Program-made: the position numbers and the translations under genes
NCBI GenBank assembly: GCA_947650285.1
Contig: CANTFL010000948.1
Coordinates: 1-18,227, forward strand
Direction of reading: 5' to 3'
Source: Hyaloperonospora brassicae
Taxonomy: Eukaryota; Oomycota; Peronosporomycetes; Peronosporales; Peronosporaceae
DNA: 18,227 nucleotides
Shown: piece after piece, positions 1,562 to 18,220 of the stretch
How the letters are laid out: each line of letters starts with the position of its first letter
How positions within the stretch are numbered: position 1 is the first letter of the stretch
Notes under the pieces: model-generated
Told to the model about the DNA's origin: nothing
The model's input: only the letters and a program-made list of their open reading frames with translations
The model's database searches: none

Positions 1562-4061
1562 CTACTTGCCTGTAATGACAGAATTCGACGAAGCGTAGCC
1601 TAGCTTTTCGAGTACCGAGCGAATACCGTCCAGTGCCGCAAAATTGTCGATGGTAGCCGGTACGCGAAACGGAGTCGAGTCAGCAATAGCTTGCATAGTA
1701 GCGCGCATGACCTTACCAGACCTTGTTTTTGGAAGCGCGTCGACTAGGCCGACACTTTTCAGGCACACAAAGCTGCCCATCTGCTCACGCACGTCGCTTA
1801 TTACCTGCTGAATGATCTGCAGTCAAGCAATAAACGCATAGCGAGGATCAGATACGTTAACTGCAACATGTGTCGCTCGAATGGCAGCATTTCGTAGAAG
1901 CACGTGCCTCTTCGTTGGATCGATCGGTCCTCTCATCAATTACCAAAAGAGCGAGCGGGACGTGTCCCTTGAGCGTATCGACGACGCCAAACTGCATCCG
2001 AAAAGAAAATAATCGAATTACAACAAGCACGACTTGTTGCATTCAACTATCACTGGCACGCACCACGGCACACTCGACAACTTTCGGGATCTCGATGATG
2101 ACTTTCTCAATAGATCCCGTAGTGATACGGTGTCCTGCAACGTTTATGACGTCATCCGTTCGTGACATGACCTGGCAATAAGTTAGCACCCACGATTCGT
2201 TTACAGTGAGTACAGAATGCAACGGGCGCAGAGTAGCTCATGCAGTTCACTTACGTAGACAAAACCTTCTTCATCAATGCGCCCAGTATCTCCAGTGTGG
2301 TAGTAGCCGGGGAATCGCTTGAAATACTTGGCGTCGAAATCGTCTGGGTTGTTGTGCAAGGCAATCAAAGCACCTGAGCAGAAGAGAGAACATTTACGTA
2401 AGAGGCACCCACAGCCTCGTTCACACTTGTAAGGTCTTGCCTGGAGGAAGAGGCAGTTTAACCACAAGCTCAGCATCTTGTTCCACATTTTTGTCGCTGT
2501 AGTCGCAATGCTCGTCGTCATTTATTTCACTGGCGACTGTTAGTAGCCGGACGTCCCACCCCGGCACTGGCCTACCAACCGAACCCTCTTTGATGCGTGG
2601 GTACCCTTCTTCGCTTTTGTCATCATTTTGCATCCCAAGACACGGCGCAGTGATGGGCCATCCCGTTTCCGTTTGCCACCTGGACATTACCCGTACAAGC
2701 GTGAAGATCGTACACAGGACATGTCACAAGATGACAACATACCAGTGGTCAATGAGAGGCACGCCAAGTTGCTGTGAGAAAAAGCTGAAGGTCTTGGGGT
2801 CACCGCGCTCCCCTGCCACGAAGATCGTTCTGCACACAGCAATCGACGACGTGTTGGTCCTCAATTGAATGACGTCCACCATCGAAGTGCGCCACTTACT
2901 TCAACGTCTTTCGGATGTCCTCTCTCAGGTGCTTGATCAGCAACCCTTCTGGATCTTCTCTGCGAATCGCCCGCAATGCAGTAGGTGCCGTGAACATCGA
3001 CTTGATGCCGTATTCCGTGATCAAACGCCAATATGCACTCGCGTCAGGCGTTTTAACTGGCTTGCCTGCGTACAGAATCGACTGCAAAAAACAGATCACG
3101 AGTCAATAACGTGCAAGCACTGGTCAAGCCGATACACAGGATGATCCTACCGTGCATCCATGTACAAGAGGACCATAGACACCGAGCGAGTGACCAACCG
3201 TCCAGCCCATATCCGAAGCGGCAAAGAACGTATCGTCCGGTGCGATATCGAAAACATTGCGCATGGCCCATTTGAGGGCAACCGCGTGGCCGCCATTATC
3301 ACGAACCACACCCTTTGGACGGCCGGTTGTGCCTGACGTGTACAACAAATAGAGCGGGTCCGTCGCAAGCACCGGTCTCGCATCGATGGGACCTCCCATC
3401 GCCATGACATCCCTCCAGTCAATATCACGTCCCTTTGCCGTCTCGAACGGACACAGATCGCGCTGTAGCATGACAACGTGACTCGGCTTCCACTTTGATC
3501 GCTTCAGCGCTCCATTCAGCAGCGGTCCGTAGTCGACAATCCCCTTGGGCTCGACACCACAACTCGCCGAGATGATCAGCTTAGGGCTTGCGTCTTCGAT
3601 CCGCGCAGCAAGCTCCAAGGTAGCAAACCCGCCAAACACGACCGAGTGAACAGCTCCAAGCCGCGCGCACGCGAGCATTGCCACTGTCGTCTCGAGAACT
3701 GCCGGCATGTAGATGACGACACGGTCACCTTTCTCGACGCCAAGCTTTTGCAGTCCACCAGCAAACGTGGACACTACAAGTAACGAACAAACACAGTACG
3801 TCAGATCGGCCCGAGTCAACATCGTGTGTATCGACGATACATGCAGATCTATCGATCGATCGAATGCTTTGGACACAGGGAAAACGATGACCTTCTTGTA
3901 GGAGCTGACTGAACGTCCTTGTCGTCTTGGTATCGGTCAGTGGACAGTCGTAGTGCAATGCGACGACGTCGCCCCGCCCATTGTTTACGTGCACATCAAG
4001 TGCATTGTAGCACGTGTTTATCTCTCCCCCCACAAACCATCGCGCGGACGGGCCACGTGTG
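1562..4061 (-). CDS. Propionyl/acetyl-CoA synthetase (ACSS3/PrpE type), nine exons, amino end missing
   Basis: This enzyme activates short-chain acids, probably propionate, to acyl-CoA through an acyl-AMP intermediate. In eukaryotes the family is usually mitochondrial or cytosolic. Exons on the minus strand: 4061-3892, 3773-3151, 3081-2900, 2829-2743, 2679-2441, 2373-2255, 2171-2064, 1991-1908 and 1816-1562 (stop TAG). All splice phases from 3892 onward are mutually consistent. Motifs in order: RWFVGGEINTCYNALDVHV, the AMP-binding loop YTSGTTGRPKGVV, SDMGWTVGHS, WWQTETG, GYYHTGDTG, SRTDDVINVAGHRI, and the carboxy-terminal PKTRSGK with the catalytic, acetylation-prone lysine. The phrase PLVHGCTSILYAGKPVKTPD is typical of the propionyl-CoA synthetase branch. 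About 620 codons are visible. No in-frame ATG exists before the first exon, and the usual N-terminal domain is absent because the region upstream belongs to a glycosyltransferase. The first exon start (after a TATACAG acceptor) is inferred. Two introns appear to use GC donors. Confidence 0.88.
1817..1907 (-). other. Second probable GC-AG intron in the synthetase gene
   Basis: The exon ends ...AACGAAGAG and the intron starts GCACGT and ends GACTGCAG. The following exon (IIQQVISDVREQMG) is in phase 0. All GT dinucleotides between 1908 and the following in-frame stop lie in phase 1 and cannot join to it. The GC donor is therefore the only simple solution I found. Length is 91 bp. Confidence 0.6.
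2374..2440 (-). other. GC-AG intron in the synthetase gene
   Basis: The exon ends ...CCTCCAG and the intron begins GCAAGA and ends CTCAG. Only this GC donor joins LPLPPG to ALIALHNN in frame, which gives the continuous family motif. The nearby GT at 2421 puts the next exon out of frame. Length is 67 bp. Confidence 0.75.
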
Positions 4062-5924: not shown

Positions 5925-5949
5925 TTGGTGTCAATGTTGTGTAACAGGC

Positions 5950-6051
5950 TGACCCGCTGCACACGGACCACCTATTCGGCCGCCCACATCAATCACTTTC
6001 TGACGCGTTGCACACGGACCACTCATTCGGTCGCCCACATCAATCACTTCC
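5950..6051 (+). promoter_or_regulatory. Tandem 51-bp duplication upstream of the effector, probable promoter
   Basis: Two adjacent copies (5950-6000 and 6001-6051) share TGCACACGGACCAC and CGCCCACATCAATCACTT and differ at 6 of 51 positions. The second contains TCATTCGG at 6023-6030, close to the oomycete initiator TCATTCC; the first has CTATTCGG. The copies end 53 bp before the effector ATG, a suitable distance for a start site. The promoter role is inferred from position and the initiator resemblance. Confidence 0.45.
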
Positions 6052-6104
6052 AGATTTGCGTCGAGTGCGCTAGTCCCTCTTGCAGCCGTCTCCGGACTTG
6101 GGCA

Positions 6105-6851
6105 ATGACGTTCACCCACCCCTTTGCACTCTTCTCCAGTGTCGCGTTGCTCTTCGTGGCCGATCTCGCCCCGGGTCTGAGCAGTCCAGCGGTTGCGACA
6201 CCTGGCGATTTCGTACTTGAAAAGAACGCCTCGAACGACCTGCCGAGGACTCGTTCTCTTGATGATGGCAAACACGAGGAGAGAGCGGGCGTCAATTTCG
6301 AGACCGTTGGATCTGCACTGGACCAGCTCGAGGCAAACGTAGCTATGACCAAAGCAGGGGGCTCTCTAGCTTATCTTTTCACGCAAGAACCGGCGACCGT
6401 TCACGGGCCAATTGACGATTTTCTGAAGTTCCTCAAGGAGTGGAATGTCGCCGAACGCTGGCCGAATTCAGAATTTCAGGTCGATCACCTCATGGAATTG
6501 AGACGGAAGGCGTTAATTTCACTCATCCTTAGGCTCGATTTAGGACGTTTGGTGAAAGGATTGTCTCAGGAAGATTCGTTCAGGTATTCATCTGCCGTAG
6601 TCAATACACTCGGGAAAATCTGGAGCGACTCAGAGATGGCGATTGCAATCCATGAGGCGCTGAAACATCCATCATCTGACTCTGCTATGCACCTTGAAGC
6701 AGCACAGTTTGAGTGGTGGCGGTCAAATTATCAGCTTGCAACTGTTACAGGCACACTCAAGAAGGATGCTGAAATGAACAAAGCCCTGGGTGATGTAGAG
6801 ACCGTAAACGCCATCTTAAAGCAGTACGATGCTTACCGCAGCGCTTCTTGA
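6105..6851 (+). CDS. Secreted RXLR-like (RSLD...EER) effector with WY/LWY-like helical domain
   Basis: This is a 248-residue protein likely secreted and delivered into host plant cells. I chose the ATG at 6105 because it opens a signal peptide: FALFSSVALLFVADLA at residues 7-22, then a likely cleavage site around residues 25-31. An upstream in-frame ATG at 5925 would bury that signal and translate the promoter repeat. Residues 50-53 read RSLD, where canonical effectors have RxLR. The acidic DDGKHEER follows, with EER at 58-60. The C-terminal domain is predicted helical. The stretch AMHLEAAQFEWW (about 194-205) resembles the A..L...QF..W signature of LWY modules. The gene is intronless. No molecular target can be deduced. 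The variant delivery motif makes it a non-canonical member. Confidence 0.82.
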   Translation: MTFTHPFALFSSVALLFVADLAPGLSSPAVATPGDFVLEKNASNDLPRTRSLDDGKHEERAGVNFETVGSALDQLEANVAMTKAGGSLAYLFTQEPATVHGPIDDFLKFLKEWNVAERWPNSEFQVDHLMELRRKALISLILRLDLGRLVKGLSQEDSFRYSSAVVNTLGKIWSDSEMAIAIHEALKHPSSDSAMHLEAAQFEWWRSNYQLATVTGTLKKDAEMNKALGDVETVNAILKQYDAYRSAS

Positions 6852-9224: not shown

Positions 9225-9229
9225 CCTCT
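9225..9229. repeat. 5-bp target site duplication (left), CCTCT
   Basis: CCTCT immediately precedes the left LTR and recurs at 16977-16981 immediately after the right LTR. This is the hallmark of integrase-mediated insertion and fixes the element ends. Confidence 0.95.
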
Positions 9230-9386
9230 TGTAACGGGGTAGCCCGTTACATGAAATTGTCATTGAAACAATTTGACAATAAAGAATATTTCGTCGAATA
9301 TTCTTTTAACAATATCATAGACATGGTGATATTGTTGAGATGGCCGAAGGGTCTACTCATTGGTTGATATCGTGATGCTATCAACC
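9230..9386 (+). repeat. Hairpin array in the 5' part of the LTR
   Basis: Five consecutive inverted repeats (left arm/right arm): 9230-9238/9243-9251 (TGTAACGGG, loop 4); 9256-9262/9274-9280 (ATTGTCA); 9281-9290/9297-9306 (AAAGAATATT, loop 6); 9308-9317/9327-9336 (AACAATATCA, loop 9); 9362-9369/9379-9386 (GGTTGATA, loop 9). A longer-range pair GTCTACTCA/TGAGTAGAC (9351-9359/9420-9428) encloses the fifth. The right LTR repeats the set at +7309. All arms are perfect. Confidence 0.9.
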
Positions 9387-9447
9387 CACAAATCGCTGCT
9401 AGACGCGCGCAATGGGGGGTGAGTAGACGTCATCATACACATAGTTA

Positions 9448-9644
9448 TATTAGTATAATTAAGTCAGGACAACAGAGATTCAAGGAGTTATAGGACTTAA
9501 TTATATTAATACAGTTTTACTTTTACCAGAGACTAGTCTGACTACTTAGTCTCCTTTCCTTCCTCTGTGTTCCTTCAACACCTAGCAGGGCACTGTCGAC
9601 CACTGTCGTCAGTGGAAGTATACTCCGTACTGGTCATCCAGTAC
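9448..9644 (+). repeat. Hairpin array in the 3' part of the LTR
   Basis: Inverted repeats (left arm/right arm): 9448-9465/9494-9511, an 18-bp stem with one G-T mismatch that would be a G-U pair in RNA; 9529-9535/9547-9553 (GAGACTA); 9600-9605/9610-9615 (CCACTG, loop 4); 9627-9633/9638-9644 (GTACTGG, loop 4). These would fold near the R-U5 region and close to the primer-binding site. Confidence 0.85.
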
Positions 9645-9669
9645 GTAGTCAACATTGCCCCGTTACACC

Positions 9670-9681
9670 TGGTAGCACTTT
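9670..9681 (+). other. Possible primer-binding site
   Basis: TGGTAGCACTTT begins two bases after the LTR, where a tRNA 3'-end complement (TGG...) is expected. It resembles the initiator-methionine type only in its first bases, so the priming tRNA is not assigned. Confidence 0.4.
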
Positions 9682-9717
9682 GTAGTCCGTTCAAGGAGCA
9701 CAACCCCATCGCCCAAC

Positions 9718-10644
9718 ATGAACATGTTGGACGATGTAGACGGCGACAACTATTACGGAACCCGTGAGGGCTACTCCCATTTGAGCTACATCGGATGTAG
9801 TGCGATCGAACGAATGAGTTCGACCGTTGGCGAGGAAGCCATATGGGCCATGCTATTCTCAAGGGATAGGGACCAGCAACATGCCGTCATTAGCAAGTTC
9901 TTGCAACGAGAACTTTATGAGTCGCGAGCGCAGGTGACCTTGTTACAACAACAAGATCACCAGCGTACCGAAGCACTGAGACAACAACAGTCTCAGTCCG
10001 CAGAGCCGACGCGTGAGCGTCGACGGGAGTCTCTAAAACTAGAGGTCTCCAAGTATCGGGGATTCGAGGAAGACTCCCTGTTGAGGTGGTTCGTCGAGCT
10101 GGACGATGCCATCGATGCTCGTCGCATCGACGATGAGCGAATGCAAGTCTCATTCGCTCAATCTAACCTGTCAGGAGAAGCCAGAGCTTGGGCTCTGAAC
10201 CTCAAGTTTCACGACCCAAATGTGTTTGGGTCGTTAGATGTCTTAAAGACCCTGCTCAGTGAGATGTTCGAGCCGCCCAGAGCAGAGTTCAGGACTCTTT
10301 CGGAGCTCCTGCAAATCAAGCAGGGTAAGCGTAAGGTTCAATCTTACGCCCATCACGTACGCTACCGTGCAAGCTGCATGGTAGTGAACCCTGTGAGTGA
10401 GTTTGTGTTGATCACAATCTTCATTAAAGGGCTTTCAGACGGTCCCGTTAGGGACCACCTGTTCCGCGGAGAGCTAAAGACGCTCTCAGAGGCAATCTTC
10501 GCAGCGGAGCAAGAAGATTATAGCGTGAGACAGTCTCACGCTACGTTGACCCCGCATCGTCCACAGAGACGATTAGCAGTCGGAGGTCCAGAACCAATGG
10601 ACCTCTGTAATGTCGAGGGCAAGAAACCTTTGTTCTGCGAATGA
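9718..10644 (+). CDS. Gag (capsid part), frame broken before nucleocapsid
   Basis: The 308 codons encode a Q/R-rich amino-terminal region (about residues 50-103, probable helix) and then a retrotransposon Gag core at about residues 105-268. The core includes KYRGFEEDSLLRWFVELDDA, GEARAWALNLKF and YAHHVRYRA, the usual capsid pattern of gypsy elements. The protein would assemble the cytoplasmic particle that packages element RNA. The ATG at 9718 lies 50 bp after the LTR. The frame runs into TGA at 10642-10644, and the nucleocapsid zinc knuckle continues in another frame, so Gag here lacks its RNA-binding tail. Many perfect short inverted repeats lie inside this reading frame. Confidence 0.88.
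   Translation: MNMLDDVDGDNYYGTREGYSHLSYIGCSAIERMSSTVGEEAIWAMLFSRDRDQQHAVISKFLQRELYESRAQVTLLQQQDHQRTEALRQQQSQSAEPTRERRRESLKLEVSKYRGFEEDSLLRWFVELDDAIDARRIDDERMQVSFAQSNLSGEARAWALNLKFHDPNVFGSLDVLKTLLSEMFEPPRAEFRTLSELLQIKQGKRKVQSYAHHVRYRASCMVVNPVSEFVLITIFIKGLSDGPVRDHLFRGELKTLSEAIFAAEQEDYSVRQSHATLTPHRPQRRLAVGGPEPMDLCNVEGKKPLFCE
9895..10605 (+). repeat. Short perfect inverted repeats inside gag
   Basis: Arms found by eye (left/right): 9895-9901/9909-9915; 9939-9944/9950-9955; 9975-9981/9991-9997; 10007-10012/10017-10022; 10031-10035/10040-10044; 10112-10118/10124-10130; 10192-10197/10202-10207; 10211-10220/10225-10234 (ACGACCCAAA, 10 bp, loop 4); 10329-10335/10343-10349; 10441-10446/10451-10456; 10469-10474/10482-10487; 10521-10530/10534-10543 (TAGCGTGAGA, 10 bp, loop 3); 10583-10590/10598-10605. 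They ignore codon register. Confidence 0.9.
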
Positions 10645-10819
10645 CAAGCGAATGGTGAGATGCCATCGCTGTCATAAACTGGGAAACTACGCATTTGAAT
10701 GCAGTATCGCCCACTCAGAACCTCGCGGTGCTGAGCGCAGTGTTCACCCACCAGCAAGAAGAACTGGAGGGAGAGGGTCCGTTGCTGTTGCGAAGTCGCA
10801 ACCGCGAGGTGGACCATAA
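10610..10819 (+). pseudogene. Gag nucleocapsid fragment with altered zinc knuckle
   Basis: In the +1 frame relative to Gag, 10661-10702 reads CHRCHKLGNYAFEC. This fits the CX2CX4HX4C zinc knuckle except that the histidine is asparagine. The frame ends with TAA at 10817-10819, which abuts a run of seven A at 10818-10824. Downstream coding resumes in a third register. In an intact relative this would be the RNA-binding carboxy end of Gag. The missing histidine and the frame change argue that it is non-functional. Confidence 0.7.
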
Positions 10820-11496
10820 AAAAACGGTCGGGATCAGTAGGTGCGGAGCGCCCTACTAATCCAGCAACATCAAGAGAATTTGCAAATCTCCTGAAGAAGG
10901 TTGCTCCCGACACACGATTTATGTGTGTCTCTGCACCTGGTGATGAGGTGTCTCTCATCACCTTGAAGTTAGAAGTGACAAAAGACGTGTCACTTCGCGC
11001 CCTAGTTGACTGTGAGCCGTCGAACATCTTTGTTCGTCGCCCGTCGCTAGAGGCAGAAACTTTTAACTTCGTGGAGCGGGAGATCCCTCCAACGAAGATG
11101 AAGGTGCGCCTAGCGACAGGCGCATCGGTCACTGTGACGAAACGTGTAGTCGGAATCCACTACACGTTAAAAGGCGAACAGTACGATGATGATTTCATCG
11201 TGCTAGACCTAGATAACAAGTCCGACGTCATCTTAGGGTTGCCTTGGCTCAGGAAATACGAGCCAAGGGTGAGTTGGCAGTATCGATCGGTTACGATACC
11301 TGCTACTGGTTCCTCAGATAACCACCTGACGAATATCTTGGAACGCCCACACTCACGTGGGTGTACTACGAGTGAGTGCGATGACCTCACTTGTGGTACG
11401 GTCGTTAGCACGACTGTACAAGAACACAATGTAGATGATCACTACATTGTGGAGAAGCCCACCCAGATCCTGTGGAACGAAGTTCCCAGGAGGTAA
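10813..11496 (+). pseudogene. Retropepsin (protease) fragment with lost active-site triad
   Basis: The frame is open from just before the seven-A run and reads through VAPDTRFMCVSAPGD into LKLEVTKDVSLRALVDCEPS. Gypsy proteases have LVDSGAS at this place. Here the aspartate remains but the following serine-glycine is cysteine-glutamate, which destroys the conserved D(S/T)G. The second family motif, DVILGLPWLRKYEP, is well kept near 11224-11265. The frame stops at TAA 11494-11496 and overlaps the RT frame by about 25 bp. The DNA change looks like a substitution plus a compensated single-base deletion and insertion. Confidence 0.75.
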
Positions 11497-12778
11497 TCGA
11501 GACGTTAAACGTCTTGTTCAATGACGGATCAAGTGTAAGCGCTTGCACACTTGATCTGGTTGCGCCTCCGAGGTTAACTTCCGAGATAACTCAGTTGCCA
11601 ACGCTAGAACCCAAACGGTTCTTGCGTGATCTGCTTAGTGGCAAAGTCAAGCAGATCTGTGTACTCGTCGCGGAGGATAAGTATGTGACCGATATTCGGT
11701 CGACAATGGTGTTTACTGAGACCGAAAGGGTTCTCAGCAGTTCGTCGATGGACGAAAGTGTCATCGATGAGAAGACTCGGATTGAGCGATACACGTCTCA
11801 ATCCTGGGAGTCACTTCAGGCAAATCCTTTGTATAAGGATTTGATCGAATTCAGGGATGTATTCCCTGAAACCGTGCCTTGCGAGTTGCCTAAGGATAAA
11901 GGCACTCGACATGAGATCGAGCTCAAACCGGGCTCCAAGTACTGTGTCATGAAGCAGTGGCCACTGCCTCGTAAACAAAAACTAGCGATCGACAAGTTCT
12001 TTGCCGATAGCTTAGCAGCGGGCCATGTGAGGGAATCGACATCACCTCACAGCTCTCCGACCTTCTGTGTGCGAAAGGCCACAGGAGGATGGCGGATAGT
12101 GCACGTGTTCAACAAGTTGAATGCTGCAACGGTACCGGCTCAGACGCCGATACCGAGGAAGGACGTTATCATAGATGGTATGTCAAAGAGTACCATCTTT
12201 TCGTCCATGGACCTGATGGATGGATTCTATCAGATCCTTATGCGTGGACGGGACACCCCGTACACGGCAGTGAGCACCCCTAGCGGTATGCTGTGGGAGT
12301 GGCTAGTGATCCACAGGGGCTGAGTAATGCCCCTGCAACATTCATTAGATGCGTTACAAATCTGCTGAGACCGGTGCGGGATTTCGCACCAAGTTATTTC
12401 GATGATGTGTTCGTCCGTAGCCGGGCTATGGACGGAAAGACGGACGTTGAAGTTCAGATAACTCACGTTCGTCAGGTTCTTCAACTCATGCGCAAGCATG
12501 AGTTGTACGCCAACCTCAAGAAGTGTATATTTGCGGCAAGCGAAATACCACATCTTGGGTGCCTCGTCGGCAAACACGGCGTCCGCCCTGATCCCGAAAA
12601 GATCAAGGCGATCACCAACTGGCCAGTGCCAGTCGATATCAAGGGACTAAGGAAGTTCCTTGGACTAGCGGCGTACTTGCATAAGCACTCGCGCAACTAC
12701 GCCGAGATGACGGTACATCTTTCTTGGTTACTCAAGAAAGATGTCAAATGGTCATGGAACGCTGAGTGCCAGCGTTCC
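10939..12778 (+). repeat. Short perfect inverted repeats in protease-RT-RNase H
   Basis: Arms (left/right): 10939-10947/10954-10962; 10972-10980/10988-10996; 11242-11250/11260-11268; 11527-11536/11547-11556 (GATCAAGTGT, 10 bp); 11628-11636/11649-11657; 11821-11829/11835-11843; 11850-11857/11863-11870; 12482-12491/12496-12505 (CAACTCATGC, 10 bp, loop 4); 12715-12726/12733-12744 (ACATCTTTCTTG, 12 bp, loop 6); 12756-12763/12771-12778. More with 6-7-bp arms lie between them. Confidence 0.9.
11472..12311 (+). pseudogene. Reverse transcriptase, amino-terminal part
   Basis: The open frame carries the approach to the polymerase (KQWPLPRKQKLAIDKFFADS, HSSPTFCVRKATGGWRIVHV) and the first catalytic aspartate in SSMDLMDGFYQILM. 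It then reads MLWEWLV and shifts out of frame at about 12310-12311, apparently by loss of one base before the expected proline-glutamine-glycine segment (PQGLSNAP continues in another frame). TGA follows at 12321. The enzyme would copy element RNA into DNA inside the Gag particle. Confidence 0.85.
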
Positions 12779-13195
12779 TTTGATGGTATCAAGAAAAGGT
12801 TGATGCAGTTGCCGATCTTGGCGATTGCCGACCAGGACAGACCGTTTCACGTGGTCTGTGACGCCAGCGACTATGCTATCGGCTGTGCGTTGATGCAATA
12901 CGACATAGAAGGCGCAGAGAGCGTCGTCTGTTATCAATCACGTCAGCTGCAGGCAGCTGAACGCAACTACCCAGTGCATGACAAGGAACTCCTTGCCATG
13001 AAGTATGCACTGGATAAGTTCCGGGTCTATATCTTGGGAGATAGATCTTTCATCGTCTATACGGACCATGCGTCACTACGCACGGCCGTAAACAGTTCAC
13101 ACCTCTCGCAAAGGTTGGCGAGGTGGCTGTCTTTCTTCGCGGAGTATAACTTCTCCGTGGAGTATAAACCAGGAACGACTCAATGTCGTCGCTGA
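12311..13195 (+). pseudogene. Reverse transcriptase palm/thumb and RNase H
   Basis: This frame begins with DPQGLSNAPATF and contains the catalytic YFDD box (SYFDDVFV near 12391-12414), the connection and thumb (GLRKFLGLAAYLHKHSRNYA), and a full RNase H. RNase H shows the aspartate in VVCDASDYAIGCAL, the glutamate in VHDKELLAMKYAL and the aspartate in IVYTDHASLRTAV. The polymerase and RNase H residues are intact, but the frame is severed from the RT amino end. It breaks again at about 13181, where one extra base moves coding to the integrase frame. TGA is at 13193-13195. Confidence 0.9.
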
Positions 13196-13723
13196 TGCGT
13201 TGTCACGTCGGCCCGACTTGAAGTCAACGTCCCGAGTCAACAGTGAGTATTTGCCCACTGTTGCTACACTGTCCATCAGTGTGCCGTCGTCACCTTTCCT
13301 CGACGACGTACGGAAAGCATACGCAGGAGACACGAATCTCCTCCGTTTGATGGGTCATCTTGCGAACCCATCCCGGAATTCCTTGTCGGATTTGCCGGCT
13401 CTGTATCGTTCCTCTTTGGATCATTACACGACTCGCAATGGCCTGCTGTAATATACAGCAGTTGCCAACGACACGCCTCGTGTCGTCGTTCCCGATCATG
13501 ATGACTTGCGATTACGCATCATGTTCGAATGTCACGATGCGCCGTCTGGCGGGCACCGTGGCCGAGAAAAGACTTACCTAACAGTCAGTCGTGACTTTTA
13601 CTGGCCCCGCCAGTATCAGTTTTCCGCAAGTACATTCGTTCTTGCGAGTTCTGTCAACGGGTGAAGCCTAGTCCTTCATCCCGTGCACCTTTACGACCTC
13701 TGTCGTTCCCGGCAGAGTGTTGA
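13182..13723 (+). pseudogene. Integrase amino-terminal zinc domain, broken
   Basis: Coding resumes at 13182 (NVVADALSRRPD) and runs to a TAA at 13449-13451 that sits inside an 8-bp hairpin. It then continues in the same frame with HDAPSGGHRGREKTYLTVSR, which supplies the two zinc-binding histidines. A frame change at about 13620-13624 precedes SCEFCQRVKPSPSS, which supplies the CxxC (13643-13654). TGA at 13721-13723 replaces a codon expected to be tryptophan. The HHCC zinc domain helps integrase multimerise on element ends. All four ligands exist but are split over two frames. Confidence 0.8.
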
Positions 13724-14271
13724 GAGTCCGTGTCAATGGACTGTGTCTTCAGGTTTCCCGAAGGCACTCACAAGAATAATGGTATTCTTGTGTTTGTGGA
13801 TCGTTTCAGCAAGATGGTACATCTTGCTGCAGTCCCAGAATCGATCAACGCCCACGGCTGTGCGCGTGTCTTCATCGACACTGTGTTTCGACTCCACGGT
13901 TTACCCCGTGAACTCGTTTCCGACTGAGCTTCACGGCGGCGTTTTGGCAATCCGTGTTCCGCATATTGGGAACACGGTTGAAGATGTCAATCTCTGATCA
14001 TCCTGAAACGGGTGGTCAGACTGAACGGGCGAACCGTGTCCTCGAAGCAATTCTTCGTGGATACGTCCACTCCTTTTCACATTGGAGTGAGTTCTTGCCG
14101 ATGGTTGAGTTTGACATCAAAAACTCCGTGCATGCGTCCACAAAGCATACACCGTTCTACGTGAATGGCTTACGCCACCCACGTATTCCCGCCCTCATAC
14201 AGAGTGACTCTGAGTTAAGGGGGGAGGGACTCGCTCGAGCAAAAACCGTTTTGGCTCTTGCTCATCACGTA
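13724..14271 (+). pseudogene. Integrase catalytic core (DDE), broken
   Basis: The first part (13724-13927) gives SMDCVFRFPEGTHKNNGILV with the first catalytic aspartate, then LPRELVSD with the second. A short deletion and TGA at 13925-13927 follow. A second frame continues from 13930 with FTAAFWQSVFRILGTRLKMS and GGQTERANRVLEAILRGYVH, which holds the catalytic glutamate, then EFLPMVEFDIKNSVHAST. The triad D, D, E is therefore present piecewise, but no single frame joins it. Homology becomes unclear after about 14271, where the register changes again. Confidence 0.85.
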
Positions 14272-14422
14272 TCACCGCTCACGCCGATACGTTTGATGTC
14301 GATGTCGACGTTGTCGACATCGAGGATATCGAGCTTAGCAGTAGCGATGACGCTGCTGCTACATCAGACAATGATGACTATCCTGGTATATTCAGCATCG
14401 TCAACGATATTCCAACGAGGTA
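14272..14422 (+). pseudogene. Acidic linker of pol in a third register
   Basis: In the frame with codons starting at 14286, the sequence encodes a strongly acidic stretch (DTFDVDVVDIEDIELSSSDD) followed by DNDDYPGIFSIVNDIP, ending at TAG 14421-14423. It appears to be a pol spacer between the integrase core and the carboxy domain. The assignment rests on its position and on continuity with the next frame, not on a recognised domain. Confidence 0.5.
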
Positions 14423-14872
14423 GAAGACAACATCGTTGAAGAAGAGAACGATCTCTTAGCAGTGCGCACGAAGCGCACTGAAAGACAAAAGAACGAGTCA
14501 GCAGAGAACTTCCTGCTGACTCGAGAGGCGGTAGTCCATTTTGTTCAGGACTCCATCGCAAATGCGGTGGACCGCCAGAAACGGAACGCAGACAAGAATG
14601 GAAGAGCGAATGTTCTTTCATTTAAAATTAATGACCTAGTACTACTGTCTACGGTAAAATTACCTGGACATGCAGTTACTAATGTCGGCAGTAGTAAACT
14701 ACTGCCGAAGTACATTGGTCCCTTTCGTGTGTTGCATCGCAAGGGCAATGCATACACGATTGACTTGCCTCGCAGGATGCGCACGCATCCTACGTTTTAA
14801 GTTGGTCGTCTCCGCCCGTACCATCAGTACGAGTCCTCTTGCGAGAACGGAGATAACCGGTGCGCTCAATAG
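14423..14872 (+). pseudogene. Integrase carboxy-terminal domain
   Basis: This frame runs EDNIVEEENDLLAVRTKRTE, then NGRANVLSFKINDLVLLSTV, SSKLLPKYIGPFRVLHRKGN and AYTIDLPRRMRTHPTF. This matches the GPF/Y-type carboxy domain of gypsy integrases (PKYIGPFRV). A TAA at 14798-14800 interrupts where tyrosine is expected. The same frame continues VGRLRPYHQYES to TAG at 14870-14872. The last 11 bp before 14800 are also the 3' end of the antisense gene. Confidence 0.85.
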
Positions 14873-16400
14873 TCCCTAACAGATTCTTGTGATCACGGAC
14901 CAAACACTGAAGTTGGTCCTTCGTCGAAAGGAGTTGGTCCTTCATCGACGCGGCCTCGCGACGAGCTGTCTCTACCTCGTCGCGCAAACGACGCCTCTCG
15001 CGTTCACTCTCAAGCTGAGCGAACGCGAGTTTCGATCGGTCCTTCTCCCGATCGGCACGAAGACGTCGCAAAATCGACTGCAAGGCGTGTCGACGATCAT
15101 ATTCGTGATCGACGTCCTCCCTCATCTCGGTCAGGTAACGCTCGTGGTTACCCAAAGTCTCGTGCAGGTCCGGCGGCTGAGCCGGACCTTGTCTTTCCAC
15201 CGCCACCGGAACCACTAGTGGATTCCCACGGTGGTTAACGCTTTCTTGTGGAGCGTATCTTGAACCACCGTGGCGATTCAGAATCAAGAACGAGTTACAT
15301 CGTCCGGTGGCGTGGGTACCCACCTTCCTTTGACAGCTGGGAACCTCTTTCCCAGCAGATGGATGACGTTGAAGGTCTCGTCCACCAGTATGACGAGACT
15401 CATCCAATTGGTCCGAGGGCCCATCGGTAAACACGCGCTTTTGGCGCTTGTAAACGGATTGCAAGTTTGCAATCGCGTCCCGCATCTCAGCCGAGATGTG
15501 TGCCCTTCCCCAGGGCGAACTTGGGGAATACACGTCCCTATGTGCACGCTGCGAGTTGTCAACACAACTCGCACAAGGGTATCCCCAAGTGAGGCAAGGA
15601 ATGTCTGCCTCACTCGACAAACGATGCAACCGGCACCTTGCACCGGTTGGCGTTCGCTTTTTGAACTTAATGCGTATCGCCTCAAGCTTCTTAAGCCACC
15701 CTTCTCGTCCAAAATTCTTGACGTTTTGGACGAAGGCGTTCCACGCTGCCAAAAGCGAGTTCTTGTCACGCTTTTGGTTGCCGTTATACCATCGATGCCT
15801 AAGGAAGGCATCGAGATAAAAATCTTCTTCAGCGCGGAAGTTTCTCGCGCTGGGACTTAAGCCATGAAGCTCCGATACAACGAATAATGGAATTCGATAA
15901 AGCTGGCTTGTCTCGTGAGACAGGCTATCGATGAGCTGGTTGGGCAAGCGCCACGGCTTGAGCTCATCACGCTTCAAAGTGGTACCTGTTTCGGTACCAC
16001 GGCTTTCAGAATGACGACGGCTCTCGCCATCGTCATCACGCTCTTGCCGGGAAGCGGGAGTTGATACTGGTGAGGCATAGTATTCCTCATCAAAGAGTCC
16101 ATCATCACTGACGAACAGACTGTGTTGCATTTCACGACTCCGCTCGTTCGACAGTGCTCTTGACAAACGATGAGGCACCGCCGGTGATCGGGATGCCTCT
16201 GGAACGTTGCGCGAGTCAGGCACGTCTGACTCGCCAGAATTGATGACCTCATTGACAAGGTCATCATGTTCACGTGGTGCGATACCGCGTGCGTCTGCAG
16301 CACCTTCTGCTGTAGATGGAGAACAAGTAGCAGACGACGAAGCGTCTGCTGCAGAGGCTGGCACAGCAGCAGGCTGTGTGGTCTTCGAATCACCTCGCAT
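14790..16400 (-). CDS. Antisense accessory ORF, 536 codons, coiled coil and Cys cluster, unknown function
   Basis: This is an unbroken reading frame on the strand opposite gag-pol, between integrase and the right LTR. I chose the first ATG (16398-16400); the open frame extends 18 codons further upstream without an ATG. Numbering from this ATG: a low-complexity Ala/Ser/Asp-rich amino region (about 1-140), a folded-looking segment (about 145-320) with RLPNQLIDSLSHETSQLYRI and LAAWNAFVQNVKNFGREGWL, a cysteine cluster C-x12-C-x6-C-x2-C at 256-279, then a segment antisense to the chromodomain (about 324-384). A charged coiled coil follows at about 440-510, and a basic RSRKRTR near the end could be a nuclear signal. 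Plant Tat-lineage elements are known to carry antisense ORFs in this position. I do not recognise this protein. It lacks lesions although adjacent pol has about ten. Confidence 0.6.
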   Translation of the reverse strand: MRGDSKTTQPAAVPASAADASSSATCSPSTAEGAADARGIAPREHDDLVNEVINSGESDVPDSRNVPEASRSPAVPHRLSRALSNERSREMQHSLFVSDDGLFDEEYYASPVSTPASRQERDDDGESRRHSESRGTETGTTLKRDELKPWRLPNQLIDSLSHETSQLYRIPLFVVSELHGLSPSARNFRAEEDFYLDAFLRHRWYNGNQKRDKNSLLAAWNAFVQNVKNFGREGWLKKLEAIRIKFKKRTPTGARCRLHRLSSEADIPCLTWGYPCASCVDNSQRAHRDVYSPSSPWGRAHISAEMRDAIANLQSVYKRQKRVFTDGPSDQLDESRHTGGRDLQRHPSAGKEVPSCQRKVGTHATGRCNSFLILNRHGGSRYAPQESVNHRGNPLVVPVAVERQGPAQPPDLHETLGNHERYLTEMREDVDHEYDRRHALQSILRRLRADREKDRSKLAFAQLESERERRRLRDEVETARREAASMKDQLLSTKDQLQCLVRDHKNLLGTIERTGYLRSRKRTRTDGTGGDDQLKT

Positions 16401-16421
16401 AGACACGTTAGCTATGCGAGG
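14957..16421 (+). repeat. Short perfect inverted repeats across chromodomain and antisense gene
   Basis: Arms (left/right): 14957-14965/14976-14984; 14997-15005/15021-15029; 15166-15174/15181-15189; 15312-15323 (12-bp palindrome GTGGGTACCCAC); 15336-15343/15349-15356; 15375-15382/15392-15399; 15457-15464/15467-15474; 15506-15512/15522-15528; 15550-15559/15564-15573 (TGCGAGTTGT, 10 bp, loop 4); 15588-15596/15606-15614; 15749-15757/15769-15777; 15792-15800/15806-15814; 15830-15836/15846-15852; 15979-15986/15993-16000; 16211-16219/16226-16234; 16241-16249/16258-16266; 16329-16336/16343-16350; 16393-16402/16412-16421 (CCTCGCATAG, 10 bp). Confidence 0.9.
15221..15430 (+). pseudogene. Chromodomain at the pol carboxy terminus
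   Basis: The frame reads DSHGG, a TAA at 15236-15238, then RFLVERILNHRGDSESRTSY, IVRWRGYPPSFDSWEPLSQQ and a tail ending at TAA 15428-15430. The VE.IL...Y.VRW.GYP...SWEP pattern is that of chromoviral chromodomains, which steer integration to chromatin carrying histone H3 marks. The two tryptophans expected in the binding fold are present. Pol cannot reach this segment in frame. The segment lies entirely opposite the antisense ORF. Confidence 0.85.
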
Positions 16422-16525
16422 CAAGGTCAGGAGTGAATGGGTCTGACCAAACAAGTGCTCCCTGTCCCACTGGTGTCCAACAGGTGGCCGCCAAGTTTTC
16501 GACAGTCACACGGTGACTATCAGAT

Positions 16526-16538
16526 AAGGGAGGGGTGA
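16526..16538 (+). other. Polypurine tract
   Basis: AAGGGAGGGGTGA lies directly against the right LTR, the expected primer for plus-strand DNA synthesis. The run is purine apart from one T just before the LTR. Confidence 0.75.
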
Positions 16539-16976
16539 TGTAACGGGGTAGTCCGTTACATGAAATTGTCATTGAAACAATTTGACAATAAAGAATATTT
16601 CGTCGAATATTCTTTTAACAATATCATCGACATGGTGATATTGTTGAGATGGCCGAAGGGTCTACTCATTGGTTGATATCGTGATGCTATCAACCCACAA
16701 ATCGCTGCTAGACGCGCGCAATGGGGGGTGAGTAGACGTCATCATACACATAGTTATATTAGTATAATTAAGTCAGGACAACAGAGATTCAAGGAGTTAT
16801 AGGACTTAATTATATTAATACAGTTTTACTTTTACCAGAGACTAGTCTGACTACTTAGTCTCCTTTCCTTCCTCTGTGTTCCTTCAACACCTAGCAGGGC
16901 ACTGTCGACCACTGTCGTCAGTGGAAGTATACTCCGTACTGGTCATCCAGTACGTAGTCAACAGTGCCCCGTTACA
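16539..16976 (+). repeat. Right LTR, 438 bp
   Basis: It is identical in length to the left LTR, with three substitutions. It has the same 10-bp inverted termini TGTAACGGGG/CCCCGTTACA and the same internal hairpin series. Antisense transcripts for the ORF starting at 16400 could originate in this LTR or in the 138 bp between, but I found no clear initiator. Confidence 0.97.
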
Positions 16977-16981
16977 CCTCT
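16977..16981. repeat. 5-bp target site duplication (right), CCTCT
   Basis: This is the right copy of the CCTCT found at 9225-9229. Joining the flanks would give back the empty target site. Confidence 0.95.
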
Positions 16982-17827: not shown

Positions 17828-18220
17828 TGTAACGGGGCACACCCTTGCGTGAACTTAACGCAAGGGTATCGGTGCCCCGACAGACGTACACAAGGCAAGC
17901 GAGGAAGCGTAGGTAGGGTAAAAGCAGAACTGTTATATTAATATAATTAAGTCTTTTAACTACTGTCTCTTTGTTTGACTTAACTTAATTATGCTAATCT
18001 AACTGAGTGTATGGTGACGTCTCGTCACCACTCATTGCGCGCGTCTTGCGGCGATTGGTGGGTTGATATCATCAAGATATCAACCAATGAACAGACTCTT
18101 TGGTCGACCCTTCAATATCACCGCTTCGGTGATATTGTTTAAGAAATATTCAACTTCATATTCATTATTGTCACTTTTCTTAAAGTGACAATTCTACATG
18201 TAACAGGCTGCCCCGTTACA
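17828..18220 (-). mobile_element. Solo LTR of a related gypsy family, 393 bp, reverse orientation
   Basis: Read on the minus strand it begins TGTAACGGGGCAGCCTGTTACA at 18220 and ends CCCCGTTACA at 17828, the same 10-bp termini as the complete element. It keeps recognisable blocks (GGTTGATATC, AATATCA, GACTTAATTATATTAATA, GACGCGCGCAATG) in the same order but is much diverged elsewhere. TTATC occurs at 17823-17827 and at 18221-18225 as a target duplication. This shows it is a solo LTR left by recombination between two LTRs, not the edge of another element. Confidence 0.93.
17833..18192 (-). repeat. Hairpin array of the solo LTR
   Basis: Arms in plus coordinates (left/right): 17833-17840/17872-17879 (CGGGGCAC) enclosing 17841-17850/17858-17867 (ACCCTTGCGT, 10 bp); 18012-18019/18023-18030 (TGGTGACG); 18061-18070/18076-18085 (GGTTGATATC, 10 bp); 18113-18123/18127-18137 (CAATATCACCG, 11 bp, loop 3); 18167-18177/18182-18192 (ATTGTCACTTT, 11 bp, loop 4). 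Several sit at the same relative place as hairpins of the full element but with different arms. Confidence 0.9.

What the first reader, a model, noticed from the sequence alone, without database searches (positions are those of the whole stretch)
9230..16976. A retrotransposon built of wall-to-wall short perfect hairpins, coding regions included
Perfect inverted repeats with 7-12-bp arms and short loops recur every few tens of bases through LTRs, gag, pol and the antisense gene. At least eleven pairs have arms of 10 bp or more with loops of 10 nt or less (for example 10211, 10521, 11527, 12482, 12715, 14494, 14686, 15550, 16393). With equal base use, about 7747 x 9 x 4^-10, that is well below one, would be expected. 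Host flanks show only isolated cases. Explanations to test: selection for folded genomic RNA (packaging, stability, evasion of pairing-based silencing), or reverse transcriptase switching strands and perfecting near-palindromes.
Basis: seen in the sequence. Interest (0 to 1): 0.88.

Follow-up and report, generated by a model that had tools for sequence, protein, structure and literature searches.

The report
Retrotransposon armoured with selected RNA hairpins
A jumping gene in what is likely a downy-mildew-type genome carries short perfect hairpins from end to end, through its protein-coding parts as well, and changes shared by several copies spare the stems while changes seen in one copy only hit them as often as any other site, so selection likely preserves them, probably to keep its RNA genome folded and perhaps hidden from the host's silencing.

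Summary
The element (9230-16976, Ty3/gypsy, 438-bp LTRs, CCTCT target duplication) has 34 perfect hairpins with arms >=9 and loops <=10, against 0.28 from dinucleotide shuffles; 9.2 kb of left flank has none. It is a decayed copy: the loci of two intact relatives (L035, L036) hold 68 and 74, and about 110 non-overlapping stems each. Codon-preserving shuffles give about 1% of the pol value. Stems are mostly 8-12 bp (mode 9), loops about 5 nt. Predicted folding excess is 47% (window copy 32%, host stretches about 0). Two sister Ty3 families have weaker versions, mostly at other positions; a Copia element and a more distant Ty3 family show no clear excess.

The discriminating test: changes private to one of nine older copies hit stems, loops and spacers equally (2.8, 2.7, 2.8%), but variants shared by two or more are halved in stems (4.8 vs 9.3%, p=2e-9), and compensated pairs are enriched among them. 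Mutation ignores the hairpins; selection likely keeps them. Reverse-transcriptase self-correction is unlikely as main cause, although three exact loop inversions point to template switching. The closest known property is genome-scale ordered RNA structure of RNA viruses. Shielding from silencing is inferred, untested.

The parts
9230..16976 (+). Ty3/gypsy LTR retrotransposon, decayed copy, 55 perfect hairpins with arms >=8 and loop <=10
9230..9667 (+). 5' LTR, 438 bp, TGTAACGGGG...CCCCGTTACA
   Evidence: 3 differences in 438 bp to the 3' LTR
16539..16976 (+). 3' LTR, 438 bp
9225..9229 (+). target-site duplication CCTCT, left
   Evidence: read in the sequence printed
16977..16981 (+). target-site duplication CCTCT, right
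   Evidence: read in the sequence printed
9718..10644 (+). gag, broken (308 aa piece)
   Evidence: PF03732 E 6.7e-10
10921..11496 (+). protease piece of pol
   Evidence: PF08284 E 7.9e-6
11472..12323 (+). reverse transcriptase, first piece
   Evidence: PF00078 E 2.4e-6 (27.9 bits, just under Pfam's cut-off of 29.6)
12293..13195 (+). reverse transcriptase end and RNase H
   Evidence: PF17917 E 1.5e-34, PF00078 E 1.5e-10
14462..14800 (+). Tf2-type SH3-like end of pol (after the integrase region)
   Evidence: PF24626 E 1.8e-11
14790..16454 (-). antisense open frame, 554 aa; eight related proteins found, three of them from named downy mildews; function unknown
9281..9306 (.). hairpin, arm 10, loop 6 (5' LTR)
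9308..9336 (.). hairpin, arm 10, loop 9 (5' LTR)
10134..10160 (.). hairpin, arm 10, loop 7 (gag)
10211..10234 (.). hairpin, arm 10, loop 4 (gag)
10521..10543 (.). hairpin, arm 11, loop 1 (gag)
11141..11168 (.). hairpin, arm 10, loop 8 (protease piece)
11425..11451 (.). hairpin, arm 10, loop 7
11527..11556 (.). hairpin, arm 10, loop 10; one pair is C-G in most copies and T-A in this one, L031 and L044
12482..12505 (.). hairpin, arm 10, loop 4 (RT)
12715..12744 (.). hairpin, arm 12, loop 6 (RT/RNase H)
13769..13792 (.). hairpin, arm 10, loop 4
13807..13829 (.). hairpin, arm 10, loop 3
14299..14323 (.). hairpin, arm 11, loop 3
14494..14523 (.). hairpin, arm 11, loop 8
14685..14708 (.). hairpin, arm 11, loop 2
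15550..15573 (.). hairpin, arm 10, loop 4 (antisense gene)
15705..15733 (.). hairpin, arm 10, loop 9 (antisense gene)
16393..16421 (.). hairpin, arm 10, loop 9 (start of antisense gene)
16590..16615 (.). hairpin, arm 10, loop 6 (3' LTR)
16617..16645 (.). hairpin, arm 10, loop 9 (3' LTR)
17828..18220 (-). LTR (partial) of a sister subfamily; carries the right flank's four long hairpins
   Evidence: 95% over 394 bp to the LTR in L025

Best explanation
The element carries perfect short stem-loops (stems mostly of 8-12 bp, loops of about 5 nt) along its whole length, and because changes shared by several copies spare the stems while changes private to one copy do not, they are likely held there by selection for a genomic RNA that folds on itself, which would probably shield it from pairing-based silencing by the host. 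How it would work: point mutations make and break stems at random; lineages that keep many stems leave more copies; lost pairs are restored by back-changes or by compensating changes; copies that stop being tested decay stem by stem. What counts is probably having stems, not where they are, because a related family carries the same kind of stems mostly at other positions. Shown: the stems, their excess over codon-preserving controls, the private/shared contrast, the covariation, the turnover between two families. Predicted: the folding of the RNA. Inferred and untested: that private changes are largely unfiltered and shared ones have passed selection, that the RNA (rather than its DNA copy) is the target, and the benefit (hiding from small RNAs or RNA nucleases while stems stay too short for dsRNA-processing enzymes).
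For: Excess over codon-preserving shuffles: L036 pol 40 vs 0.44, gag 9 vs 0.17, antisense gene 13 vs 0.23 stems of arm >=9, loop <=10 (200 shuffles each). Private changes in nine older copies: arm 392/13,962 (2.81%), loop 117/4,318 (2.71%), spacer 1,390/49,652 (2.80%), arm-spacer p=0.95; sites with a variant shared by two or more of the nine: arm 76/1,578 (4.8%), loop 66/488 (13.5%), spacer 521/5,589 (9.3%), p=1.8e-9; at fourfold-degenerate sites 7/159, 10/41, 77/612, p=0.002; private fourfold changes in the two intact copies: arm 0/318, loop 5/82, spacer 33/1,224, p=7e-4. With stems chosen only from older copies, intact L035 and L036 differ at 1/152 fourfold sites in arms and 51/717 elsewhere, p=0.001. 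Compensated pairs: of 886 scorable L036 pairs 24 differ on both sides from the commonest state of the older copies and still pair (2.7%; 101 further pairs not scorable), against 15 of 1,364 (1.1%) when partners are slid out of register over seven offsets, p=0.007; of changed pairs 24/132 against 15/276, p=1e-4. Shared changes 27 compensated: 88 broken on one side: 5 double and unpaired, private 17: 462: 26; compensated against broken p=1.6e-10, compensated against double-unpaired p=1e-4. Stem length has its own mode: maximal arms of 7, 8, 9, 10, 11, 12 bp occur 16, 25, 31, 24, 10, 4 times in L036 (shuffled 2.6, 0.2, 0, 0.1, 0, 0), none longer at loops 2-9. Folding excess 47.4% (L036), 44.5% (L035), 31.9% (window copy), -3.1 to 2.3% (three host stretches); 81 of 86 scored L036 stems appear in the minimum-energy fold. 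Loops are A-rich on the + strand in L036 (0.349 vs 0.246 in spacers; purines p=2.6e-4), also in the antisense-only part, which points to the + strand. Unpaired states that are shared or commonest in the nine older copies are G-U 35: A-C 17 (private 123:128), p=0.02. Positions not shared between L036 and L039 (3 of 47 centres, random 1.8).
Against: G-U pairs are not favoured over A-C where it should show best: interior single mismatches in intact copies are G-U 9: A-C 10 (L036) and 8: 13 (L035) for stems with 9 or more Watson-Crick pairs, and with all eleven copies the shared excess is 40:26 vs 133:128, p=0.17. The complementary strand is predicted to fold as well as the RNA strand (pol 46.6% vs 48.8%) and hairpin energies do not differ between strands, so selection on cDNA, on both RNA strands or on DNA is not excluded. 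The loop purine bias is significant in L036 and L035 (p=0.025) but not in L039 (p=0.29), L040 (p=0.76) or the window copy (p=0.4). In a 2.8-kb pol piece of seven younger copies the private/shared logic gives weak results: fourfold sites with shared variants arm 3/93, non-arm 25/359, p=0.23; any variant 13/93 vs 85/359, p=0.048; all sites p=0.16 and 0.35. The window copy has lost about half its stems relative to intact relatives, yet its LTRs differ at only 3 of 438 positions, so a stem-poor copy moved recently, or its LTRs were homogenised. Residues encoded in arms are somewhat less conserved among the 120 best-listed homologues (0.60 vs 0.70, p=0.01), so stems may cost the protein something. 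No RNA was probed; no silencing data were seen.
Confidence: 0.6

Rival explanations
1. Reverse transcriptase folds back on its own nascent cDNA and copies one arm into the other (quasipalindrome correction), so that hairpins are a mutational by-product needing no selection.
For: Exact loop inversions at three places, a known trace of template switching between inverted-repeat arms: two in L020, one in L012 (12 of 3,494 copy-to-copy comparisons of differing loops, shuffled-loop control 0). Mismatches in intact copies show G-U about equal to A-C. Among the families looked at the trait is confined to one RT clade. Nine of 106 L036 stems differ from every older copy by three or more pairs, a few of them in ways that one arm replacement could explain. 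In yeast, template switching between such short inverted repeats homogenises arms and inverts spacers (PMC8604942, passages read).
Against: Private changes are as frequent in arms as elsewhere, which continual correction would lower. Between L035 and L036 only 1 of 767 scorable pairs (stems chosen in older copies) or 4 of 966 (stems chosen in L036) is changed but still paired; my hand estimate under free arm-to-arm copying, not a call, is well above ten. 12 of 13 listed candidate gains need one or two point changes. Fourfold sites in arms are constrained.
Confidence: 0.15
2. Selection acts on the single-stranded DNA copy, on both complementary strands, or on cruciforms in the integrated DNA, rather than on the genomic RNA alone; for example to keep sense and antisense transcripts from annealing.
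For: Complement folds equally well; G-U and A-C mismatches about equal in intact copies; the element has its own antisense gene, and stem density in L036 is highest in its antisense-only part (18.4 per kb against 13 in gag and pol and 9.5-16.2 elsewhere).
Against: Loops are A-rich on the + strand in five of six regions of L036 including the antisense-only part; shared G-U exceed A-C in older copies; perfect or near-perfect palindromes (loop 0-1) are few (5 of 113 in L036), against a cruciform or dyad requirement.
Confidence: 0.2
3. The stems are repeated protein-binding sites, such as for Gag, used to package or compact the RNA.
For: Uniform module size, mode 9 bp with short loop, spread over the whole RNA including LTRs.
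Against: No common loop type (2 GNRA, 0 UNCG among 35 four-base loops of L036 and L035); a packaging signal normally needs few sites (recalled); the stem-poor window copy still moved.
Confidence: 0.1
4. Chance, composition, or an assembly artefact.
For: None found.
Against: Dinucleotide and codon-preserving nulls; many of the same stems in separate copies, and stems inside long open frames; no excess in Copia L037 and in eight of eleven host windows of the same assembly.
Confidence: 0.01

Closest known systems
[quoted passage not shown]
   Same: Folding excess along the whole genome including coding sequence; largely unbranched consecutive stem-loops; duplexes kept to about 14 bp or less; paired sites less variable; positions turn over between relatives.
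   Different: This is an LTR retrotransposon with a DNA stage; the excess is about 47% by my shuffles (that paper: about 15% for SARS-CoV-2, 23.4% the highest recorded in vertebrate RNA viruses, other shuffling method); stems are discrete perfect hairpins mostly of 8-12 bp; the complement folds equally well; within the family many positions are conserved with covariation.
Ty3 and Ty1 genomic RNA structures probed in yeast (PMC11381356, abstract and section 29 read)
   Same: LTR-retrotransposon genomic RNA with structured regions inside coding sequence.
   Different: Described there as a mosaic, with stable structured regions up to 30% of Ty1 and Ty3 RNA, and A-rich; no array of perfect hairpins in the parts read.
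Template switching between short inverted repeats in yeast coding DNA (PMC8604942, passages read)
   Same: Perfect inverted repeats with arms of 7-16 bp and spacer inversions, as in L020 and L012.
   Different: There events in some tens of genes attributed to DNA polymerase; here about a hundred stems per intact element, likely held by selection rather than by correction.
Oomycete Ty3/gypsy elements (Peronospora, Phytophthora, Globisporangium, Aphanomyces; listing, best 120 of 2,623 matches)
   Same: Reverse transcriptase-RNase H 57-80% identical among the listed matches that name an organism and cover at least 95% of the query.
   Different: Only proteins were available; whether their DNA carries the hairpins could not be tested.

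Membership tests
Ty3/gypsy LTR retrotransposon | Two direct LTRs with TG...CA ends and a short target duplication | tested here: met
   438-bp LTRs, 3 differences; CCTCT on both sides
Ty3/gypsy LTR retrotransposon | gag, protease, RT and RNase H in order | tested here: met
   PF03732, PF08284, PF00078, PF17917
Ty3/gypsy LTR retrotransposon | Integrase after RNase H | tested here: inconclusive
   Only the SH3-like end scored in the broken window copy (PF24626)
Ty3/gypsy LTR retrotransposon | Primer-binding site and polypurine tract | not tested
   none
Genome-scale ordered RNA structure | Native folding energy far below shuffled controls along the genome | tested here: met
   L036 mean 47.4% over 22 windows, minimum 26.5%; L035 mean 44.5% over 24, minimum 3.0%; window copy 31.9%; codon-preserving 39-48%
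Genome-scale ordered RNA structure | Unbranched short stem-loops, no long duplexes | tested here: met
   L036 arms at most 12 bp at loops 2-9, longest 14 bp with loop 0
Genome-scale ordered RNA structure | Paired sites less variable than unpaired | tested here: met
   (weaker)
Genome-scale ordered RNA structure | Pair positions turn over between related genomes | tested here: met
   L036 vs L039 3 of 47 centres shared, random 1.8; but many conserved within the family and 2 of 13 shared between L039 and L040
Genome-scale ordered RNA structure | RNA virus genome | tested here: not met
   The carrier is an LTR retrotransposon, so the claim is 'has this property', not membership of those viruses
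Genome-scale ordered RNA structure | RNA folds so in the cell | not testable with these tools
   needs probing
Quasipalindrome correction / template switching | Spacer inversions | tested here: met
   three places
Quasipalindrome correction / template switching | Most new stems made by multi-base arm replacement | tested here: not met
   12 of 13 listed candidate gains need one or two point changes, one not alignable; but 9 of 106 L036 stems differ by three or more pairs from every older copy

The most novel reading that the evidence does not exclude
A clade of oomycete Ty3 retrotransposons has turned its entire genome, protein genes included, into a strand-symmetric armour of about a hundred perfect hairpins, stem mode 9 bp, that fold sense and antisense RNA alike, long enough to hide from small-RNA pairing and short enough to escape dicing: the most heavily self-folded natural coding RNA that I know of, and a case of genome-scale ordered RNA structure in a retrotransposon.
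Probability: 0.3. Interest if true: 0.92.

Novelty: new variant of a known kind. Interest (0 to 1): 0.82.

Why it matters
Genome-wide RNA folding is known from RNA viruses but its purpose is unsettled. Here it appears at about twice the strongest value quoted in the paper read (by a somewhat different measure), in a chromosomal element with many copies in one genome. Changes private to single copies show the mutation pattern and shared variants show the filter, so selection and mutation can be separated inside one genome. Families with strong (L036), moderate (L039), weak (L040) and no clear (L027, Copia L037) structure share one host, which makes the silencing-evasion idea directly testable with small-RNA and RNA-probing data.

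Tried and rejected
Rejected: chance and composition; host-wide mutational process (Copia L037 and the distant Ty3 family in L027 lack a clear excess in the same genome); stems as fixed cis-elements (positions differ between L036 and L039); RNA tetraloop enrichment (2 GNRA and 0 UNCG of 35 four-base loops); strand preference by hairpin energy (no difference); arm-to-arm direction (changed arm L 52: R 45). An early test, G-U against A-C in one-mismatch stems, came out even and first pointed me to reverse-transcriptase self-correction; the later private-versus-shared comparison turned me back to selection. Led nowhere: scans of viral and prokaryote contigs for relatives' DNA (none); structure of the antisense protein (mean pLDDT 51; only the C-terminal coiled coil is high-confidence); an antisense gene downstream of pol in the L039 family (L045 stops at a contig end, no convincing match). 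Promoters and transcripts were not looked at.

Not all controls were clean. Of four Copia loci, L033 and L037 had 1 stem each of arm >=8, loop <=10; L034 had 7, six of them in its first kilobase, unexplained; L038 had 12 but also holds fragments of the Ty3 family. Three of eleven arbitrarily placed host windows (L020, L025, L026) also have excess because they hold a copy or LTR of the family; L020 was then used as an older copy, though not whole. L009, the allele of the window copy, and L031, only 3.3 kb, were left out of the eleven-copy counts; L009 is not in the alignment at all. In one search private double changes that still pair numbered 18 against 2.4 expected, but those that do not pair 31 against 4.8, so that count by itself showed no pairing bias.

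Full report
WHAT IS THERE. The window is contig C588 of an unnamed 100.6-Mb genome. Relatives of its proteins in Peronospora, Hyaloperonospora and Phytophthora and a sister family about 95% identical to a Peronospora matthiolae protein suggest a downy-mildew-type oomycete; that is an inference. Positions 9230-16976 hold one Ty3/gypsy element with 438-bp LTRs and a CCTCT duplication (duplication read in the sequence). gag, protease, RT and RNase H domains score, but the frames are broken: longest open sense stretch 322 codons against 1,666 in L036 and 1,339 in L035. An antisense frame of 554 codons (14790-16454, minus) has eight relatives, 40-79% identical over 47-94% of its length, three of them named (Hyaloperonospora arabidopsidis, two Peronospora matthiolae). 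Contig C64 carries the same insertion with the same flanks as far as compared, so it is likely the other allele.

Perfect inverted repeats with arms >=9 and loops <=10: 34 in the element, 0 in 9.2 kb of left flank. Shuffles keeping dinucleotides give 0.28; shuffles keeping the protein and codon counts give 0.02-0.12 for each of five coding pieces of the window, which hold 2-9. Nine fetched copies from elsewhere (allele included, one not whole) have 24-42 such stems. Of eleven arbitrarily placed 10-kb windows eight have 0 or 1; the other three contain a copy or an LTR of the family.

THE WINDOW COPY IS THE DECAYED VERSION. The 8.6-kb loci of intact copies of a sister subfamily, L035 and L036, hold 68 and 74 such stems and 110 and 113 non-overlapping perfect stems of arm >=8, loop <=20, spanning almost a third of the sequence. 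pol of L036 has 40 against 0.44 in codon-preserving shuffles, gag 9 against 0.17, the antisense gene 13 against 0.23. The module is uniform: maximal arm length peaks at 9 bp and falls away by 12, and loops peak at 4-6 nt. Density in L036 is 9.5-18.4 stems per kb in all six regions from LTR to LTR.

WHO HAS IT. In the same genome a related Ty3 family (L039, 52% amino-acid identity over 1,169 residues of pol) has 22 stems of arm >=8, loop <=10 against 0.84 expected; a third (L040) 7 against 0.58. A more distant Ty3 family (L027, 24-31% identity) lies in a 10-kb window with one such stem, and the Copia element L037 has one; other Copia loci are less clean (see tried and rejected). Stem positions are not shared between L036 and L039 (3 of 47, random 1.8, p=0.26) and hardly between L036 and L040 (2 of 33, random 0.5, p=0.08), while L039 and L040 share 2 of 13 (random 0.19, p=0.006). 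So the habit, not the site, seems conserved over long times, and sites over short ones. No DNA of relatives in other species could be reached.

SELECTION OR MUTATION. Within the family 61 of 106 L036 stems (arm >=8, loop <=10) have no mismatched pair in at least one of nine older copies. Of 886 scorable L036 pairs 24 (2.7%) differ on both sides from the commonest state of those copies and still pair, 108 are unpaired there; with partners slid out of register over seven offsets it is 15 of 1,364 (1.1%) and 261. The excess is 2.5-fold over all pairs (p=0.007) and 3.3-fold among changed pairs (18% vs 5%, p=1e-4). The discriminating comparison is between changes private to one copy, which I take as largely unfiltered, and variants found in two or more copies, which passed through a replicating lineage. 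Private changes in the nine older copies fall on arms, loops and spacers alike (2.81, 2.71, 2.80%) and nearly alike on the three codon positions (3.0, 2.5, 3.0%). Shared variants are halved in arms (4.8%) relative to spacers (9.3%) and highest in loops (13.5%), p=1.8e-9, and the contrast holds at fourfold-degenerate sites (4.4, 12.6, 24.4%). Two intact copies show 1 of 152 fourfold differences in arms against 51 of 717 elsewhere, with stems chosen from other copies. Among pairs changed relative to the commonest paired state, shared changes are 27 compensated, 88 broken on one side and 5 doubly changed and unpaired; private ones 17, 462 and 26. Thus the mutation process does not seem to see the stems and something downstream of it does. 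I read this as purifying selection on pairing. A smaller test on a 2.8-kb pol piece of seven younger copies points the same way but is weak (fourfold sites p=0.048 for any variant, p=0.23 for shared ones; all sites p=0.35 and 0.16).

REVERSE-TRANSCRIPTASE CORRECTION. It would copy one arm into the other; then arms should lose private changes, and changed-but-intact pairs should build up at a fair part of the neutral rate. Neither is seen (1 of 767 pairs, 4 of 966). Of 13 listed candidate gains 12 need one or two point changes and one could not be aligned. Still, template switching leaves traces: at three places a loop of 6-7 nt is the exact reverse complement of the loop of another copy, two in L020 and one in L012, the outcome described for yeast inverted repeats (PMC8604942, passages read). 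A shuffled-loop control gave none; for about 300 independent comparisons, my rough count, 0.02-0.07 would be expected by chance. Nine of 106 L036 stems differ from every older copy by three or more pairs; some of these could be arm replacements.

WHICH STRAND, WHICH MOLECULE. Local folds of L036 are about 47% more stable than dinucleotide shuffles (lowest of 22 windows 26.5%), L035 44.5% (lowest 3.0%), the window copy 31.9%, another older copy 31.6%, L039 14.9%, L027's Ty3 stretch 5.3%, L040 4.4%, Copia L037 2.4%, three host stretches -3.1 to 2.3% (8 shuffles per window). Codon-preserving shuffles give 39-48% for L036 genes. 81 of 86 scored stems of L036 are in the minimum-energy fold. For SARS-CoV-2 the cited figure is about 15%, the highest for vertebrate RNA viruses 23.4% (PMC7642675; other shuffling method, so only a rough comparison). 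For the RNA strand speak A-rich loops on the + strand of L036, in the antisense-only part too (the short pol/antisense overlap, 32 loop bases, goes the other way, and the bias is not significant in L039, L040 or the window copy), and a twofold excess of G-U over A-C among shared or commonest unpaired states in the older copies (35:17 against 123:128 private, p=0.02; gag and pol 22:9 against 83:93, p=0.02; overlap and antisense gene 11:8 against 26:27, p=0.6; all eleven copies p=0.17). Against it speak equal G-U and A-C in intact copies' imperfect stems and an equally folded complement. I hold genomic RNA the likeliest target, with cDNA or both strands open.

WHAT IT MAY BE FOR. The features match genome-scale ordered RNA structure as described for coronaviruses: consecutive unbranched stem-loops, duplexes not beyond 14 bp, less variable paired sites, shifting positions (PMC7642675, abstract and passages), for which shielding of the RNA from recognition is proposed there. 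In an oomycete the obvious recogniser is RNA silencing; a paper on small RNAs matching transposable elements in Phytophthora infestans (PMC3522703) appears in the listing (title and start of abstract only). That step is inference.

IN PRINT. Searches (open-licence PubMed Central only; 4-20 rows shown of up to 489 matches) listed no paper whose title or abstract start describes a hairpin-packed LTR retrotransposon or ordered RNA structure along one; subscription papers are not covered.

Noticed in passing
window 5925-6851 (+): 308-codon frame with a secretion-signal-like stretch and an RSLDD...EER-like motif, no Pfam match: resembles an RxLR-type effector (motif recalled). A 51-bp tandem duplication lies at 5949-6050.
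   Followed up: no
window 3124-3876 (-): AMP-binding domain frame, E 3.5e-40, perhaps part of an acetyl-CoA synthetase (name recalled).
   Followed up: no
window 14790-16454 (-): Antisense gene with relatives in Hyaloperonospora and Peronospora; the Hyaloperonospora one carries the source name 'Core-binding (CB) domain-containing protein'; AlphaFold mean pLDDT 51, high only for a coiled coil within residues 429-531.
   Followed up: partly
window 9230-16976: LTRs differ at 3 of 438 sites although the frames are broken and about 3% of arm sites carry private changes: a defective copy mobilised late, an error-rich last cycle, or LTR homogenisation.
   Followed up: partly
window 17828-18220 (-): Partial LTR of a sister subfamily at the window edge, 95% identical over 394 bp to an LTR in L025.
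   Followed up: partly
G000:C851:193172-193762: Two family LTRs in opposite orientation with no gap between the matches.
   Followed up: no
L020 and L012: Exact loop inversions inside hairpins at three places.
   Followed up: yes
L034 first kilobase: Six of this Copia locus's seven hairpins of arm >=8, loop <=10 sit in its first kilobase; the locus has no blastn match to the Ty3 element; unexplained.
   Followed up: no
G000:C313, C761, C786 and others: Sister Ty3 family with 1,795-codon frames, about 95% identical to a Peronospora matthiolae protein: close kinship or recent transfer.
   Followed up: no
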